DNA of 64,000 nt from Methylocystis sp. SC2 (lineage in GTDB: Bacteria > Pseudomonadota > Alphaproteobacteria > Rhizobiales > Beijerinckiaceae). Each line of letters opens with the position of its first letter. Within the stretch, counting starts at the first letter, position 1. The stretch lies in NCBI RefSeq assembly GCF_000304315.1, contig NC_018485.1, forward strand, positions 3,380,501 to 3,444,500. The letters are read 5' to 3'. The notes beneath the pieces are model-generated. The model saw only the letters and a program-made list of their open reading frames with translations, ran no database searches and had not been told where the DNA came from. This document shows, one piece after another, positions 26,348-30,556 of this stretch. Both the position numbers and the translations under genes were made by a program.

Positions 26348-26736
26348 TAGCGCTCGATACAATTGTGCTCGTGCGCTACCTCGCCCAGGACGACCGCGAG
26401 CAAGCCAAAGCCGCGACGCGATTTATCGAAGAGGCGTTGACGGCCGGCGATCCTGGTTTCATTTCGACGATCGTTCTTTGCGAGATCATCTGGGTGCTCG
26501 AAACCTGCTATAATTTGACGAGAGCGGACCTCGTTTCGATCATCAAAGCGCTGCTCGATACGCGGCAAATCGTCGTGGATGAGGCAGACGCCGTGCGCGC
26601 CGCCCTGAATCATTCCAGCGTCGATCTTGTCGACGCGATCATTCATGAGGTGGGCAGGTCGCGCCGGTGCCAGAGGACGGTGACGTTCGACCGCAAGTTC
26701 GCCCGTCTGGCCGGCGTCGAACTGCTTGGCAGGTGA
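26344..26736 (+). CDS. VapC-like PIN-domain toxin
   Basis: A 130-residue PIN ribonuclease. The acidic residues that bind Mg2+ are visible: D5 (MIALDTIVLV), E47 (TIVLCEIIW), D97 (VDLVDAII) and D116 (TVTFDRKFA). Such toxins cut tRNA or other RNA and stop growth until the antitoxin is restored. The GTG start overlaps the antitoxin stop, the usual arrangement for balanced synthesis. An AbrB-type antitoxin paired with a PIN toxin is a standard VapBC variant. Confidence 0.9.
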   Translation: MIALDTIVLVRYLAQDDREQAKAATRFIEEALTAGDPGFISTIVLCEIIWVLETCYNLTRADLVSIIKALLDTRQIVVDEADAVRAALNHSSVDLVDAIIHEVGRSRRCQRTVTFDRKFARLAGVELLGR

Positions 26737-26773
26737 GCGGTCCGCAGCTCTGATGACTGGCGCAACCTGCTCC

Positions 26774-26815
26774 CTCTCCCTTCGAAGTCGGCTGTCGCCG
26801 ACTTCGAAGGGAGAG
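26774..26815. repeat. Perfect 18-bp palindrome with a 6-base loop
   Basis: Arms CTCTCCCTTCGAAGTCGG and its exact complement flank CTGTCG, 37 bases after the toxin gene. It has no T-run and resembles intergenic REP-type palindromes. It could act as a 3' boundary for the toxin-antitoxin mRNA. Confidence 0.65.
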
Positions 26816-26930
26816 CGGCGGCGCCGCTTCTTGCGACCTTCGGGGCCGTTTCTTGCTCCACCGGAGCGCTTTTGGTAGAAGCCGCAGGCTTTCGCGCTCG
26901 CGCCGGCGCGCCGTCGAACGCAGGACACTC

Positions 26931-28466
26931 ATGCTTTTCTACGAGCCGCTGTTCCTGTTTCTGTTCGGCCCGGCGGTTTACCTCCTGTATCTCTTCTTTG
27001 GAGAAGTCCGCGCGCGGCGGGCCCTCATCCTGCTTGCGGCAAGCGTCGTCTTTTACGCCTGGAGCGAGCCGGTCTTCATCTTCCTCGTCTTCGCCTCGGT
27101 CGCGCTCGATCTTTATGTGGCGCGAAGGATCGCCGCTCTATCCATCAGCGATCCCGCCGTCATAGCCGACGCTTCGCGCGAGCGAAGCGATCGGGAATCC
27201 AGACTTGCCAGCGAGGCGGTGATTGCTCTGGATTCCCGGTCAGGCCTTCGGCCTGCCGGGAATGACACGCGCAAGCTCTGGCTCGCGCTTGGCGTCGTCG
27301 CCAATCTCGCGATCCTCGTCTACTACAAATATACGGGCTTTCTGGCGCTCAATCTCGACGCGCTCTTGAAGGCGCTGACGCTGCCGGGGATCAACATTCC
27401 CCAGATCGCGCTGCCGATCGGCGTCAGCTTCATCGTCTTCGAAAAAATCACCTATCTCGTCGACGTCTATCGCGGCGTCACGGCGCCGGCGCGCCGGCCG
27501 CTGCTCTATGGGCTTTACGTCTTCTTCTTCCCCAAGCTCCTCGCCGGGCCGATCATCAAATATCACGACATCGCGCGCCAGTTCGACGAAATGCCGCACG
27601 CCGACGTCGATGATTTCGTCATCGGCTTTTCGCGCTTCATGCTCGGCGTCGTGAAGAAGCTGCTCTTCGCCGATACGCTGGCGAGCGGCGCGGATCTGAT
27701 CTTCGCGCATGACGTCAGCGCGCTCGGCTTCGCCGAGGCCTGGGCGGGCGTGCTGTTCTTCACCTTCCAGATCTATTTCGATTTTTCCGGCTATTCCGAC
27801 ATGGCGATTGGGCTCGCGCGCATGTTCGGCTTCCGGCTTTTAGAAAATTTCAACATGCCCTATGTCGCGACGAGCATCACCGATTTCTGGCGGCGCTGGC
27901 ATATTTCTCTCACCAGCTGGATTCGCGAATATCTGTATTTTCCGCTCGGCGGCAATCGGCGCGGCGAAGCGCGCACCTATCTCAATCTGTGGATCTGCTT
28001 CTTCGCCTCGGGACTCTGGCACGGCGCGGCTTGGACCTATATCGCCTGGGGCGCCTATAATGGCGTGTTCCTCGTGCTCGACCGGCTGTTTCTGGTGAAA
28101 AGCCTTCAGCGGTTGCCGGACTGGTTCGCCAATATCGTCACGATGATCGTCGTCATCGTCGGCTGGACATTCTTTCGCGCGACCTCTCTCACGCAAGCGG
28201 GCGCGCTGCTGGCGCTGATGGCGAATCCGACGGCGCACGCCAGCGCGCCGCTCGCCATTCCGGAAGAATATGTCGTCGTGGCGCTGATCGCCGCGGCGAT
28301 CTGCGCCGCGCAGCGTCTGTCGCTTTATGTCAAGGATTTCAGTTGGGGAAGCGCGGCGCAGCGCTACGCCTTGGCGTCGAACAGTGCGCTTTCCATGCTC
28401 TTTCTTGCGGCTTTGGCGAAGGGACTGGCCGATCCCTTCAAGCCGTTCATCTACTTTCGCTTTTGA
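26931..28466 (+). CDS. MBOAT family membrane O-acyltransferase
   Basis: A 511-residue multi-pass acyltransferase of the AlgI/DltB type, which moves acetyl groups across the inner membrane for O-acetylation of a surface polysaccharide. About ten membrane helices are visible. Family marks are YFDFSGYSDMAIG (about 282-294), the DFWRRWHISL motif (about 320) and the catalytic histidine H364 in GLWHGAAW. Residues 77-112 are encoded by an inserted palindromic repeat (27159-27266) that lies between the second and third membrane segments. The frame stays open and continues directly into RKLWLALGVV. The ATG at 26931 has an AGGA ribosome-binding site. The downstream SGNH protein is its likely periplasmic partner. 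Confidence 0.9.
   Translation: MLFYEPLFLFLFGPAVYLLYLFFGEVRARRALILLAASVVFYAWSEPVFIFLVFASVALDLYVARRIAALSISDPAVIADASRERSDRESRLASEAVIALDSRSGLRPAGNDTRKLWLALGVVANLAILVYYKYTGFLALNLDALLKALTLPGINIPQIALPIGVSFIVFEKITYLVDVYRGVTAPARRPLLYGLYVFFFPKLLAGPIIKYHDIARQFDEMPHADVDDFVIGFSRFMLGVVKKLLFADTLASGADLIFAHDVSALGFAEAWAGVLFFTFQIYFDFSGYSDMAIGLARMFGFRLLENFNMPYVATSITDFWRRWHISLTSWIREYLYFPLGGNRRGEARTYLNLWICFFASGLWHGAAWTYIAWGAYNGVFLVLDRLFLVKSLQRLPDWFANIVTMIVVIVGWTFFRATSLTQAGALLALMANPTAHASAPLAIPEEYVVVALIAAAICAAQRLSLYVKDFSWGSAAQRYALASNSALSMLFLAALAKGLADPFKPFIYFRF
27159..27266. repeat. Palindromic repeat inserted in frame inside the MBOAT gene
   Basis: A 108-bp element, exactly 36 codons, closely matches the intergenic element at 30008-30110. 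Both run from GTCAT to GGGAATGAC. The right 40 or so bases are identical except for one base (GGCCTTCGGCC here, GGCCTGCGGCC there). The left half keeps an internal stem (CGCTTCGC with GCGAAGCG) that differs in sequence from the other copy but stays palindromic. The encoded peptide is hydrophilic and charged, unlike the membrane segments on both sides. Confidence 0.85.
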
Positions 28467-28490
28467 AAGCGCGAGGGCGATCGAGCCGAC

Positions 28491-29765
28491 ATGGACAAGC
28501 GCGTCGAAAACGATCAAGCGGAATTGGGAGCGGCGGCGCCGACCTCTTTCGCGCGCGCCTTTTTCAAGTCGCTCAGCTTCGCGCGCTTGCCGATCTTTGG
28601 CTGCGCGGGCTTCATCGCCTTTCTGTTCCTCGCCAATATGTGGAATTTCGCCGTCGAGCGCGATTGGCCGAAGCTGCGCATCCGCAGCGCCTGGCCGCTC
28701 GCCGGCGTCGCCAAGCCAAAGCCCGCGCCCTGGACGCTCGACGCTTTTCTTTCGGGAGAGACGCAAAAGGCGGTGTCGACAAATCTTGGGCGAATGTCGC
28801 CGGTTTTTCCGATTTCCGTACGCGCGAAAAATCAGCTGGTCTTTTCGCTGTTCGGCGGCTCGGCCGCGCCCGGCGTCATGATCGGCCGCAACGGCCAGCT
28901 CTATGAAGATATCTATATCGACGAATTTTGCGCGCGTGACGGCCGCTTCGATCCTGCCCGCGTCGCAGCATGGTCTTCGGCGTTGCGCGATATTCAGGAG
29001 ATGACGCAGGCGCGCGGAAAGAGCTTCGTCTATCTGATTTCGCCGTCCAAGGCGGCGCGCTATGCGGAAGACCTTCCGAAGTCCGCGCCATGCGCTTCGC
29101 GCGCGACATCGATGCCCGACAAGCTCGCGCCCTATCGCACGGCGCTCGATGAATCGCATGTGCGCTATGTGGACGGCCCGGCGCTCATCGACGCGGAAAA
29201 ATCCAGACAGGAGATCGCGCTGTTTCCGCGCGGCGGCTCGCATTGGAACAGCGTTGGCGGCGCGCTCGCCATGCGCGAGGTTACGCGCGCGGCGCCAACG
29301 TCTCCCGTCGGCGCGCTCGATTTTACCTCAGCGCCGGCGCCCGAAGCCCTCGGCACCGACCGCGACCTGCTGGACCTGTTGAATCTTCTGTGGCCCGACG
29401 CGTCTTATCCGACCGCGGCGATCGGCAGGGCAGGGGAGAAGGGCGATTGCGCGCGCGCGCCGCGGCTGCTCGCGCTTGGCGGCAGCTTTCTGCATCAGGT
29501 TCTGGCGGCGGCGACGCTCGCGCCCTGTCCGCCGCAAATCGACTATTGGTTCTATATGCGCACCGCGGACAATGGAATCGAACTCGGTCATTACCGGCGC
29601 CCGCCCGGCGACGCCTCGAATGGCGAGCGGCTGGCGGCGACATCGGAAGAACTCGACGAAAACCTCGCCGGCGCCGACTTCGTCCTGCTCGAAGAAAACG
29701 AAGCCGGCGTCGCCACGACGAAGCAGATCGGCCATCTCGCCGAGGCGCTGCGCCGTATGCGTTAG
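28491..29765 (+). CDS. AlgJ/AlgX-like SGNH-type acetyltransferase partner
   Basis: A 424-residue membrane-anchored periplasmic protein: one membrane helix at about 33-52, then a large soluble domain. It has AlgX/AlgJ-like features: SPSKAARYAED (about 184-194), the catalytic-type GGSHWNSVGG with H251, and a GSF motif in LALGGSFLHQ (about 327-336) that could supply the nucleophilic serine. In alginate and similar systems the MBOAT protein delivers acetyl groups across the membrane and the SGNH protein transfers them to the polymer. It starts 24 bases after the MBOAT stop. No polysaccharide synthase is encoded nearby, so the substrate is unknown. Confidence 0.8.
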   Translation: MDKRVENDQAELGAAAPTSFARAFFKSLSFARLPIFGCAGFIAFLFLANMWNFAVERDWPKLRIRSAWPLAGVAKPKPAPWTLDAFLSGETQKAVSTNLGRMSPVFPISVRAKNQLVFSLFGGSAAPGVMIGRNGQLYEDIYIDEFCARDGRFDPARVAAWSSALRDIQEMTQARGKSFVYLISPSKAARYAEDLPKSAPCASRATSMPDKLAPYRTALDESHVRYVDGPALIDAEKSRQEIALFPRGGSHWNSVGGALAMREVTRAAPTSPVGALDFTSAPAPEALGTDRDLLDLLNLLWPDASYPTAAIGRAGEKGDCARAPRLLALGGSFLHQVLAAATLAPCPPQIDYWFYMRTADNGIELGHYRRPPGDASNGERLAATSEELDENLAGADFVLLEENEAGVATTKQIGHLAEALRRMR

Positions 29766-29802
29766 GCGAGGCGCGGATATAGGTGACTCGATTGGGCGCG
29801 AG

Positions 29803-29960
29803 CCCCCTCTCCCCGTTCACGGGGAGAGGGCTGGGGTGAGGGGCCGGGGAAAGGAACAGGGACGCCGATCGCGGCTTTGAGCCCATAGGCGTTTCCAGCG
29901 CACGGCGAAAGGCCCCAAGCCCCTCACCCTAACCCTCTCCCCGCAAGCGGGGAGAGGGGC
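29803..29960. repeat. Inverted pair of REP-like palindromes
   Basis: Two copies of one element face each other. The first has the stem CCCTCTCCCCG / CGGGGAGAGGG (29805-29830) followed by GGGGTGAGGGG. The second has CCCCTCACCC followed by the stem CCCTCTCCCCGC / GCGGGGAGAGGG (29933-29958). This is the layout of bacterial BIMEs, mobilised elsewhere by REP-associated transposases; none is encoded in this window. Confidence 0.75.
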
Positions 29961-30007
29961 GCGCGCGTTCGAACGATTCATACGATGTCGATTTAAACGG
30001 CTCGGCT

Positions 30008-30110
30008 GTCATTCCCGACGCGCGAAGCGCGATCGGGAATCCAGAGCAGAACCAGCGTTCTTGGATCGGCTCTGGATTCCCGGTCAGGCCTGCGGCCTGC
30101 CGGGAATGAC
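30008..30110. repeat. Double-hairpin palindromic repeat (intergenic copy)
   Basis: Each half is itself a hairpin: TTCCCGA..TCGGGAA around CGCGCGAAGCGCG on the left, and TTCCCGG..CCGGGAA around TCAGGCC/GGCCTG on the right. The halves also pair with each other through CGGGAATCCAGAG and CTCTGGATTCCCG. This is the free copy of the element found inside the MBOAT gene. Confidence 0.85.
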
Positions 30111-30556
30111 AAGCTCCGACCGAAAGGATCACGCGGAATTCGCATCGCTTGTGTCGCCACGTCGCCAGGGATCGCGGCTCGCGCAACAGCGGAGATTGGT
30201 TTTTCGCGCAAAGCGCGCTCAACGCTTTTGAGATCGATTGCGTCATCGCATTTGTGCGAGTTCGTGCAAATGCCGGTCGTATGTCGGTTTGAATTTCGGC
30301 GTACGACCCATAACAGTCGCCCCGCCGAGCGGATGATGAATAGTTTGATTTGAGCCGACTCAGTCATTCCTAAGGGCACAATCTTGGATGAAATGCCGCT
30401 CAACTTATGCAACAAACTTTTGCACGCGCCAAGGCCCCGATTTTCAAGGCTTCGATGCTTAATGCAAAAGTCTTGATGTGGGCCATGTTCGGAAGCCTTG
30501 CTGTACCGTCGTGGCGGGCGTACCACTGAATGGCCGGACAGGGCGAGGGGTATACA

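What the first reader, a model, noticed from the sequence alone, without database searches (positions are those of the whole stretch)
27159..27266. Palindromic repeat exapted in frame inside an MBOAT acyltransferase gene
A 108-bp element (36 codons, no stop, no frameshift) sits inside the coding sequence between two membrane helices. Its near twin is a free intergenic repeat 2.8 kb away. The right halves match except for one base, and in the left half the inner stem has changed sequence while staying palindromic. The encoded residues 77-112 are hydrophilic and not expected in MBOAT proteins. Rickettsia palindromic elements are the known precedent for repeats that invade proteins; such an element in a G+C-rich alphaproteobacterium outside Rickettsiales would be notable.
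Basis: partly seen in the sequence, partly recalled or inferred. Interest (0 to 1): 0.8.

Follow-up and report, generated by a model that had tools for sequence, protein, structure and literature searches.

The report
Palindromic repeat inside acyltransferase gene
A short palindromic DNA repeat found about fifty times in this methane-eating bacterium has landed in frame inside a membrane enzyme gene, and inside two other conserved genes, adding a probably floppy loop to each protein; repeats inside proteins were already known from Rickettsia and some other bacteria, but here the same protein loops were hit by different repeat families in different species.

Summary
Confirmed: window 27159-27266 (108 bp, 36 codons, no stop) is one of 53 places in this chromosome (length identical to Methylocystis sp. 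SC2) matching an element of two inverted hairpins. Of 30 aligned MBOAT orthologues 6 carry it, all open; 19 have a short linker, 5 a longer unrelated one; 12 other-genus rows have 0-4 residues there. AlphaFold2 gives the insert low confidence, between two helices.

The element also sits in frame in rsmA/ksgA and cobB, in SC2 and two relatives (3 of 53, 3 of 33, 3 of 47 places examined). In other Methylocystis the same rsmA and cobB loops carry different palindromic inserts, also in frame.

"Exapted" is not shown: insert pN/pS is about 1 in rsmA and cobB, 0.34 in MBOAT. Yet insert synonymous sites are 2-5 times less diverged than in the rest of the genes, hairpin arms vary less than centres, and rsmA shows compensatory arm changes.

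The kind is known: CGTC-tagged repeats (including Rickettsia RPE-6 and Neisseria dRS3), and intragenic repeats outside Rickettsiales, were reported in 2013. Re-use of the same loops by different families is the freshest part; one Xanthomonas precedent exists.

The parts
26931..28466 (+). CDS of a membrane-bound O-acyltransferase (MBOAT), 511 aa
   Evidence: Pfam MBOAT PF03062 103.9 bits over residues 195-415; outside the insert pN/pS 0.15 among 6 orthologues
27159..27266 (+). Palindromic element in frame, residues 77-112 VIADASRERSDRESRLASEAVIALDSRSGLRPAGND
   Evidence: One of 53 places of the family in the chromosome; absent from 24 of 30 aligned orthologues; the one long stretch with pLDDT under 50 is 74-109
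27159..27202 (+). Left hairpin unit, preceded by c to give the tag CGTC; outer stem broken at two bases in SC2 (ATAGCC for ATTCCC in the other five orthologues that carry it)
27203..27226 (+). Centre, unlike the centres of the other 21 aligned copies of SC2 but recognisably the same in all six MBOAT orthologues that carry the element
27227..27266 (+). Right hairpin unit CTCTGGATTCCCGGTC-AGGCCTTCGGCCT-GCCGGGAATGAC
   Evidence: 40 bases 100% identical at G000:C1:3070593-3070632
30008..30110 (+).
   Evidence: R1 match 120.2 bits; fold z -7.3 on 30010-30112
28491..29765 (+). Neighbouring AlgX-like SGNH hydrolase gene, probably the functional partner of the MBOAT
   Evidence: Pfam ALGX PF16822 34.6 bits; the pairing is inference

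Best explanation
A non-coding mobile palindromic repeat of the CGTC-tagged REP type, organised as an inverted dimer of two hairpins and multiplied in one part of the genus Methylocystis, inserted into an MBOAT gene at a loop between two transmembrane helices. One of its frames has no stop and the net length gained was a multiple of three, so the insertion survived as an extra hydrophilic, probably disordered loop of about 36-38 residues. The same happened independently in rsmA (loop before the ANLPYN motif) and in cobB (linker between the nucleotide-binding and amidotransferase domains). These are rare survivors of many insertions, carried mostly as passengers. In rsmA and cobB of other species different palindromic inserts occupy the same loops, so tolerance of the protein loop decides where copies survive. 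SHOWN here: the repeat, its copy number, the in-frame position, empty orthologues, three host genes, site re-use, low model confidence of the insert. INFERRED: mobility, neutrality, disorder, translation of the insert, and how the repeat moves.
For: Copy family: 98 model matches in SC2 condensed to 52 places plus one, 53 in all; pattern 43 against control 0. Empty orthologues: insert in 6 of 30 MBOAT, 13 of 30 RsmA, 8 of 25 CobB plus a differently arranged one in G035; these alignments hold the best-scoring loci fetched, and all carriers are open in frame as far as their contigs reach (RsmA of G017 and CobB of G012 are fragments). Other inserts at the same loop: rsmA, a CGTCATTGCGAG-type element (39-87 matches in G036, G029, G002, G009, G030, 10 in SC2); cobB, a CCCTCCCC-type element in 6 of 25 (30-75 matches in those genomes) and an ACCTCCCC-type one in 2 of 25 (dispersal not tested). 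The insert follows repeat abundance: 16 of 20 genomes with at least 31 model matches carry it in at least one of the three genes, 0 of 17 with at most 5 (Fisher p 5.9e-7, phylogeny not corrected). Loop position: pLDDT under 50 at MBOAT 74-109 and lowest in RsmA at 116-151 (a poorer model with other low stretches). RsmA residues 110-153 fall where PDB chain 4jxj_A has 3 residues between aligned positions 114 and 118. CobB insert 244-280 lies between Pfam matches ending at 201 and starting at 292. In-frame loss of the left hairpin in RsmA of G005, G016 and G017 (DNA of the first two) fits a dispensable passenger.
Against: Gene trees with the insert removed show patchy presence: MBOAT 6 changes, at least 3 forced by well-supported branches, no clustering (500 of 500 shuffles as low); RsmA 4 and 2 (0 of 500); CobB 5 and 2 (103 of 500). 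So losses, exchange between species or repeated insertion must be added. Synonymous sites inside the insert are less diverged than in adjacent windows and rsmA shows compensatory arm changes, which a pure passenger does not predict. Four genomes rich in the repeat (G002, G026, G030, G036) carry it in none of the three genes as far as aligned. No target duplication could be defined, and no transposase was identified. No expression data. The RsmA model is weak (mean pLDDT 63.6).
Confidence: 0.85

Rival explanations
1. The hairpin itself, as DNA or RNA, is what is kept: intragenic copies serve a nucleic-acid role (mRNA stability, binding site), or their arms correct each other by template switching, so that the palindrome stays near-perfect whatever the peptide does.
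For: pS in the insert 0.116, 0.128, 0.048 against 0.260, 0.340, 0.259 in the rest of MBOAT, RsmA, CobB (6, 7 and 8 genomes); the 30 codons on either side have 0.17-0.44. Arms less diverged than centre in all three genes. In rsmA the left inner stem changed from GCCCGCGCAGCGGGC to GCTCGTGAAACGAGC; 3 of 15 pairs have changes on both sides, covariation score reached by 1 of 500 shuffles (8 rows, 5 distinct).
Against: In SC2 the MBOAT left stem is broken; rsmA copies of G005, G016, G017 have lost the left hairpin in frame. The inserts are short, so pS rests on few sites (52, 78 and 42 synonymous differences summed over pairs), and the rows are related, so the shuffle count is no probability. The number of pairs with changes on both sides was reached by 41 of 500 shuffles.
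Confidence: 0.25
2. True exaptation: the inserted peptide has acquired a selected function in MBOAT (for example contact with the AlgX-like partner).
For: MBOAT insert pN/pS 0.34 among 6 genomes; the insert is kept without stop in all six.
Against: pN/pS 1.15 and 1.06 in RsmA and CobB; low model confidence of the insert; absent from same-genus genomes whose proteins are 91-95% identical over the rest.
Confidence: 0.12
3. A broken or mis-called gene: the element interrupts a pseudogene, or the frame is not translated.
For: No expression data were available.
Against: Open frame in 6 of 6 orthologues that carry it, rest of the gene under purifying selection (pN/pS 0.15), Pfam match above cut-off, confident fold of the rest.
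Confidence: 0.03

Closest known systems
CGTC-tagged palindromic repeats, family CGTC-1 (PMC3733652; passages, sections 6 and 15 and the first part of 17 read)
   Same: CGTC/TGTC tag, 8-bp stem beginning AT, CCA tail, paired in inverted orientation, mostly in alphaproteobacteria, intragenic copies, no associated transposase
   Different: The loops here are long inner hairpins, not 4 bases (the paper notes other loops in Bradyrhizobium); Methylocystis is not named in the main text
Rickettsia palindromic elements (RPE; review PMC10969869, passages read; RPE-6 equals CGTC-1 and RPE-4 equals CGTC-4 by PMC3733652)
   Same: In-frame insertion into unrelated genes, encoding a recurrent peptide
   Different: G+C-rich host outside Rickettsiales; 3 hosts among 53 places, where the review says nearly half of the RPEs lie in ORFs
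Neisseria dRS3 (ATTCCCN8GGGAAT; pattern seen in PMC2911385, passages)
   Same: Same stem ends ATTCCC/GGGAAT
   Different: 8-base interior; in pathogenic Neisseria arranged in large intergenic arrays
REPINs and RAYT transposases (recalled; GTAG families in PMC3733652)
   Same: Two inverted hairpins about 100 bp long
   Different: No Y1_Tnp PF01797 match in the chromosome, no GTAG tag

Membership tests
CGTC-1 repeats | Unpaired CGTC (or TGTC/CCTC) tag at one end | tested here: met
   CGTC at 27158-27161, TGTC on the reverse strand at the right end; CGTC or TGTC before the stem in many other copies
CGTC-1 repeats | 8-bp stem starting with AT | tested here: met
   ATTCCCGA/TCGGGAAT and ATTCCCGG/CCGGGAAT in the family alignment; the SC2 MBOAT copy has two broken bases on the left. 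RNAalifold of the 22 copies prefers pairing between the two units instead
CGTC-1 repeats | 4-base loop | tested here: not met
   The interior is a further short stem-loop in both units; the source allows exceptions in Bradyrhizobium, so it is called CGTC-1-like, not filed as a strict member
CGTC-1 repeats | Tail CCA and inverted dimers | tested here: met
   GGGAATCCAGA ... TCTGGATTCCC
Rickettsia palindromic elements | In-frame copies inside unrelated protein genes | tested here: met
   MBOAT, rsmA, cobB
Rickettsia palindromic elements | Sequence homology with an RPE family | not tested
   No Rickettsia sequence was compared; the link rests on PMC3733652
REPIN with RAYT | Cognate Y1 transposase in the genome | tested here: not met
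   0 matches to PF01797 in the chromosome held; 5 of 14 control genomes ring; the held genome is one contig, so SC2 plasmids were not searched
MITE | Target-site duplication | tested here: inconclusive
   Linkers of empty orthologues are too diverged to define the junction

The most novel reading that the evidence does not exclude
Certain protein loops (the one before ANLPYN in RsmA, the domain linker in CobB) act as recurrent landing pads where unrelated palindromic repeat families insert in frame in parallel in related species, and once inside a gene the hairpins keep themselves palindromic through arm-to-arm templated correction or selection on the nucleic acid, so that a selfish DNA structure, not the peptide, governs how that part of the protein evolves.
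Probability: 0.3. Interest if true: 0.72.

Novelty: new member of a known kind. Interest (0 to 1): 0.52.

Why it matters
It extends protein-invading palindromes to a well-sampled methanotroph genus with empty and filled alleles side by side, so that the old question of whether such inserts are neutral, harmful or useful can be tested by allele exchange. The repeated use of the same loops by different repeat families is a natural insertion-tolerance screen of two conserved enzymes.

Tried and rejected
Rejected: the insert as an ancestral MBOAT feature (24 of 30 aligned orthologues and 12 of 12 chosen other-genus rows lack it). Mobilisation by a resident RAYT. An Rfam family: in window 26700-30400 no match reached its gathering score; the miRNA matches at 29817-29946 are a G+C-rich inverted pair. 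More intragenic hosts: of 53, 33 and 47 places (SC2, G023, G004), 7, 5 and 6 have a spanning ORF with third-position G+C above second-position G+C on both sides, and 3, 3 and 5 pass a cut of 0.15, which I set after seeing the values. The two extra ones in G004 have no Pfam match and look like shadow ORFs, so I dropped them. The place lists of G023 and G004 come from a capped listing. An earlier codon-usage score was noisy though it picked the same three. A first pairing string for rsmA was drawn wrongly and redone. A peptide regular expression for the element missed carriers and was not used. The 2002 RPE paper is not held. That I know of no report of Methylocystis inserts rests on the searches only. 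treat the one place taken with ends that I extended by hand.

Full report
WHERE IT IS. The window is bases 3380501-3444500 of a 3,773,444-base chromosome. The published chromosome of Methylocystis sp. SC2 has exactly that length (PMC3794950, passages), and the nearest named relatives are Methylocystis, so I take it as SC2; this is inference from length and kin. The MBOAT gene starts at ATG 26931 and encodes 511 residues.

THE OBSERVATION. The 108 bp at 27159-27266 read GTCAT...ATGAC, add residues 77-112 and contain no stop. They fold with z -5.5. Covariance model R1, built from 22 full-length copies of 102-112 bp, the MBOAT copy among them, finds 98 matches on both strands. Merged these are 52 places; one hit, extended by hand, makes 53. 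The scored candidates were capped, so this is a lower bound. The element is two hairpin units facing each other around a variable centre: TGTC-ATTCCCGA-(inner stem)-TCGGGAATCCAGAGC ... GCTCTGGATTCCCGGTC-(AGGCCTTCGGCCT)-GCCGGGAATGACA.

ORTHOLOGUES. One search covered 61 genomes; 45 had a match, some only to the repeat peptide; the 30 best loci were fetched. In these 30 6 carry the element (G000, G032, G023, G004, G029, G017). A seventh, G028, is a fragment that was not aligned but matches residues 1-291 at 92%. Nineteen have 470-480 residues and a short linker. Five (G022, G009, G021, G011, G025) have a longer linker that does not resemble the element. In a second alignment, 12 rows chosen from other genera have 0-4 residues in those columns. 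All six carriers share a recognisable centre sequence, which points to one insertion. But presence is patchy on the gene tree (6 changes, at least 3 forced; 500 of 500 shuffles as low), so later loss or exchange between species is needed.

TWO MORE HOST GENES. The search hit an ORF of 318-321 aa in several genomes; it is rsmA/ksgA (TIGR00755, 225.8 bits against a cut-off of 171; Pfam RrnaAD). In 30 aligned RsmA proteins (of 58 genomes with a match) 13 have the element in frame, some shortened; 4 have a different insert (PSLRAEGEAI...LLRSARNDG type) and G030 has a short remnant of it; 12 are empty. A scan of the 53 places in SC2 for ORFs with coding composition on both sides gave a third host, cobB (NCBIfam 505.9 bits). 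In 25 aligned CobB proteins (of 58 genomes with a match) 8 have the element, G035 a differently arranged one, 6 a CCCTCCCC-type insert, G036 a remnant of it, 2 an ACCTCCCC-type insert, 5 a short linker; G010 and G046 were not classified.

SITE RE-USE. The inserts whose DNA was printed are palindromic. The rsmA alternative (CGTCATTGCGAGC...GCTCGCAATGACG) has 39, 61, 79, 84 and 87 matches in G036, G029, G002, G009, G030 and 10 in SC2. One of the G009 matches lies inside its rsmA. The cobB alternative has 30-75 matches in six genomes and 47 in SC2. That the ACCTCCCC type is a dispersed repeat was not tested. In G026 and G029 further hairpins lie inside the cobB insert. The nearest precedent I saw is one sentence in PMC3733652: different repeats at about the same site of recB in two Xanthomonas species.

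ABUNDANCE AND RARITY. Among the 37 genomes also searched for the three genes, 16 of 20 rich ones and 0 of 17 poor ones carry the element in at least one gene (relatedness and incomplete assemblies are not corrected for). Only 3 of 53 (SC2), 3 of 33 (G023) and 3 of 47 (G004) places are judged inside genes, after dropping two shadow ORFs in G004; they are the same three genes each time. If 85-88% of the genome is coding (assumed), most random insertions would hit genes, so nearly all such insertions have been removed.

WHAT THE INSERT DOES TO THE PROTEIN. AlphaFold2 gives mean pLDDT 83.4 for MBOAT; the only long stretch under 50 is 74-109, between helices 47-72 and 111-148, although part of it is drawn as a helix 87-103. 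The RsmA model is poorer (mean 63.6) and has other stretches under 50 (21-29, 191-200, 227-243, 269-271), but its longest and lowest one is 116-151, between helix 106-114 and strand 154-160. In the PDB relative 4jxj_A the same place has 3 residues between aligned positions. The CobB insert lies between its two Pfam domains; no PDB relative of CobB was found by sequence. In all three SC2 genes the left unit is read in the same frame (VIPD/VIAD/VIPN ... DRES); three of six frames of the consensus are free of stops, so this agreement alone is weak.

SELECTION. pN/pS in the insert is 0.34 (MBOAT), 1.15 (RsmA) and 1.06 (CobB), against 0.15, 0.14 and 0.23 in the rest. So there is little sign that the peptide matters, least in RsmA and CobB. 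However, pS itself is low in the insert (0.116, 0.128, 0.048 against 0.260, 0.340, 0.259), and the 30 codons on either side have 0.17-0.44, which argues against simple recent transfer of a long tract. The closest approach is 0.171 just downstream of the MBOAT insert. Arms vary less than centres. In rsmA, 8 left units (5 distinct) keep 93% of pair cells, with 3 of 15 pairs changed on both sides; the covariation score was reached by 1 of 500 shuffles, the number of such pairs by 41. This may be template-switch correction between arms, conversion by other copies, or selection on the hairpin; I cannot tell them apart. Counter-evidence is that SC2's MBOAT left stem is broken and three rsmA copies have lost the left hairpin.

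WHAT IS KNOWN. PMC3733652 describes CGTC-tagged repeats, mostly in alphaproteobacteria, equates CGTC-1 with Neisseria dRS3 and Rickettsia RPE-6 and CGTC-4 with RPE-4, reports intragenic CGTC and GTAG copies in several species and finds no transposase linked to CGTC repeats. Our element meets tag, stem, tail and dimer and fails the 4-base loop. A 2024 review calls the Rickettsia in-frame fusions unusually frequent and thinks a similar process in other prokaryotes conceivable (PMC10969869, passages).

VERDICT. A real, well-supported in-frame insertion of a known kind of repeat, extended here to three genes and to parallel use of the same loops. Exaptation is unproven. The low synonymous divergence and compensatory arms inside coding sequence are the unexplained part.

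Noticed in passing
L009 (SC2 3333868-3336976); same flank beside the copies in L002, L007, L012, L021: At least five copies end exactly beside the same sequence (tggggtggacggccccgcctcaa...); in L009 the adjoining ORF matches IS110/IS116-family transposase domains, as if that IS targets the tip of the palindrome.
   Followed up: partly
flanks of copies in L004-L007, L011, L013-L015, L022: Many intergenic copies share further flanking sequence outside GTCAT...ATGAC (left cgaacggctcggct-type, right aggcccaagcgaacggatcagccgga-type, by eye), so the full unit may be larger than the part found in genes.
   Followed up: no
window 29800-29960: Inverted pair of a CCCTCTCCCCG repeat just upstream of the free element; it gives weak spurious miRNA matches in Rfam.
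   Followed up: partly
window 26770-26820: Another palindrome (cttcgaagtcggctgtcgccgacttcgaag) upstream of the MBOAT gene; similar hairpins sit inside the cobB inserts of G026 and G029.
   Followed up: no
MBOAT orthologues L046-L050: Five species have proteins 26-34 residues longer than the common 473, with a longer linker at the same place that does not resemble the element; origin unknown.
   Followed up: no
   Followed up: no
MBOAT gene tree: Sister MBOAT alleles G017 (filled) and G005 (empty) differ in the insert, which suggests exchange between species or clean loss.
   Followed up: partly
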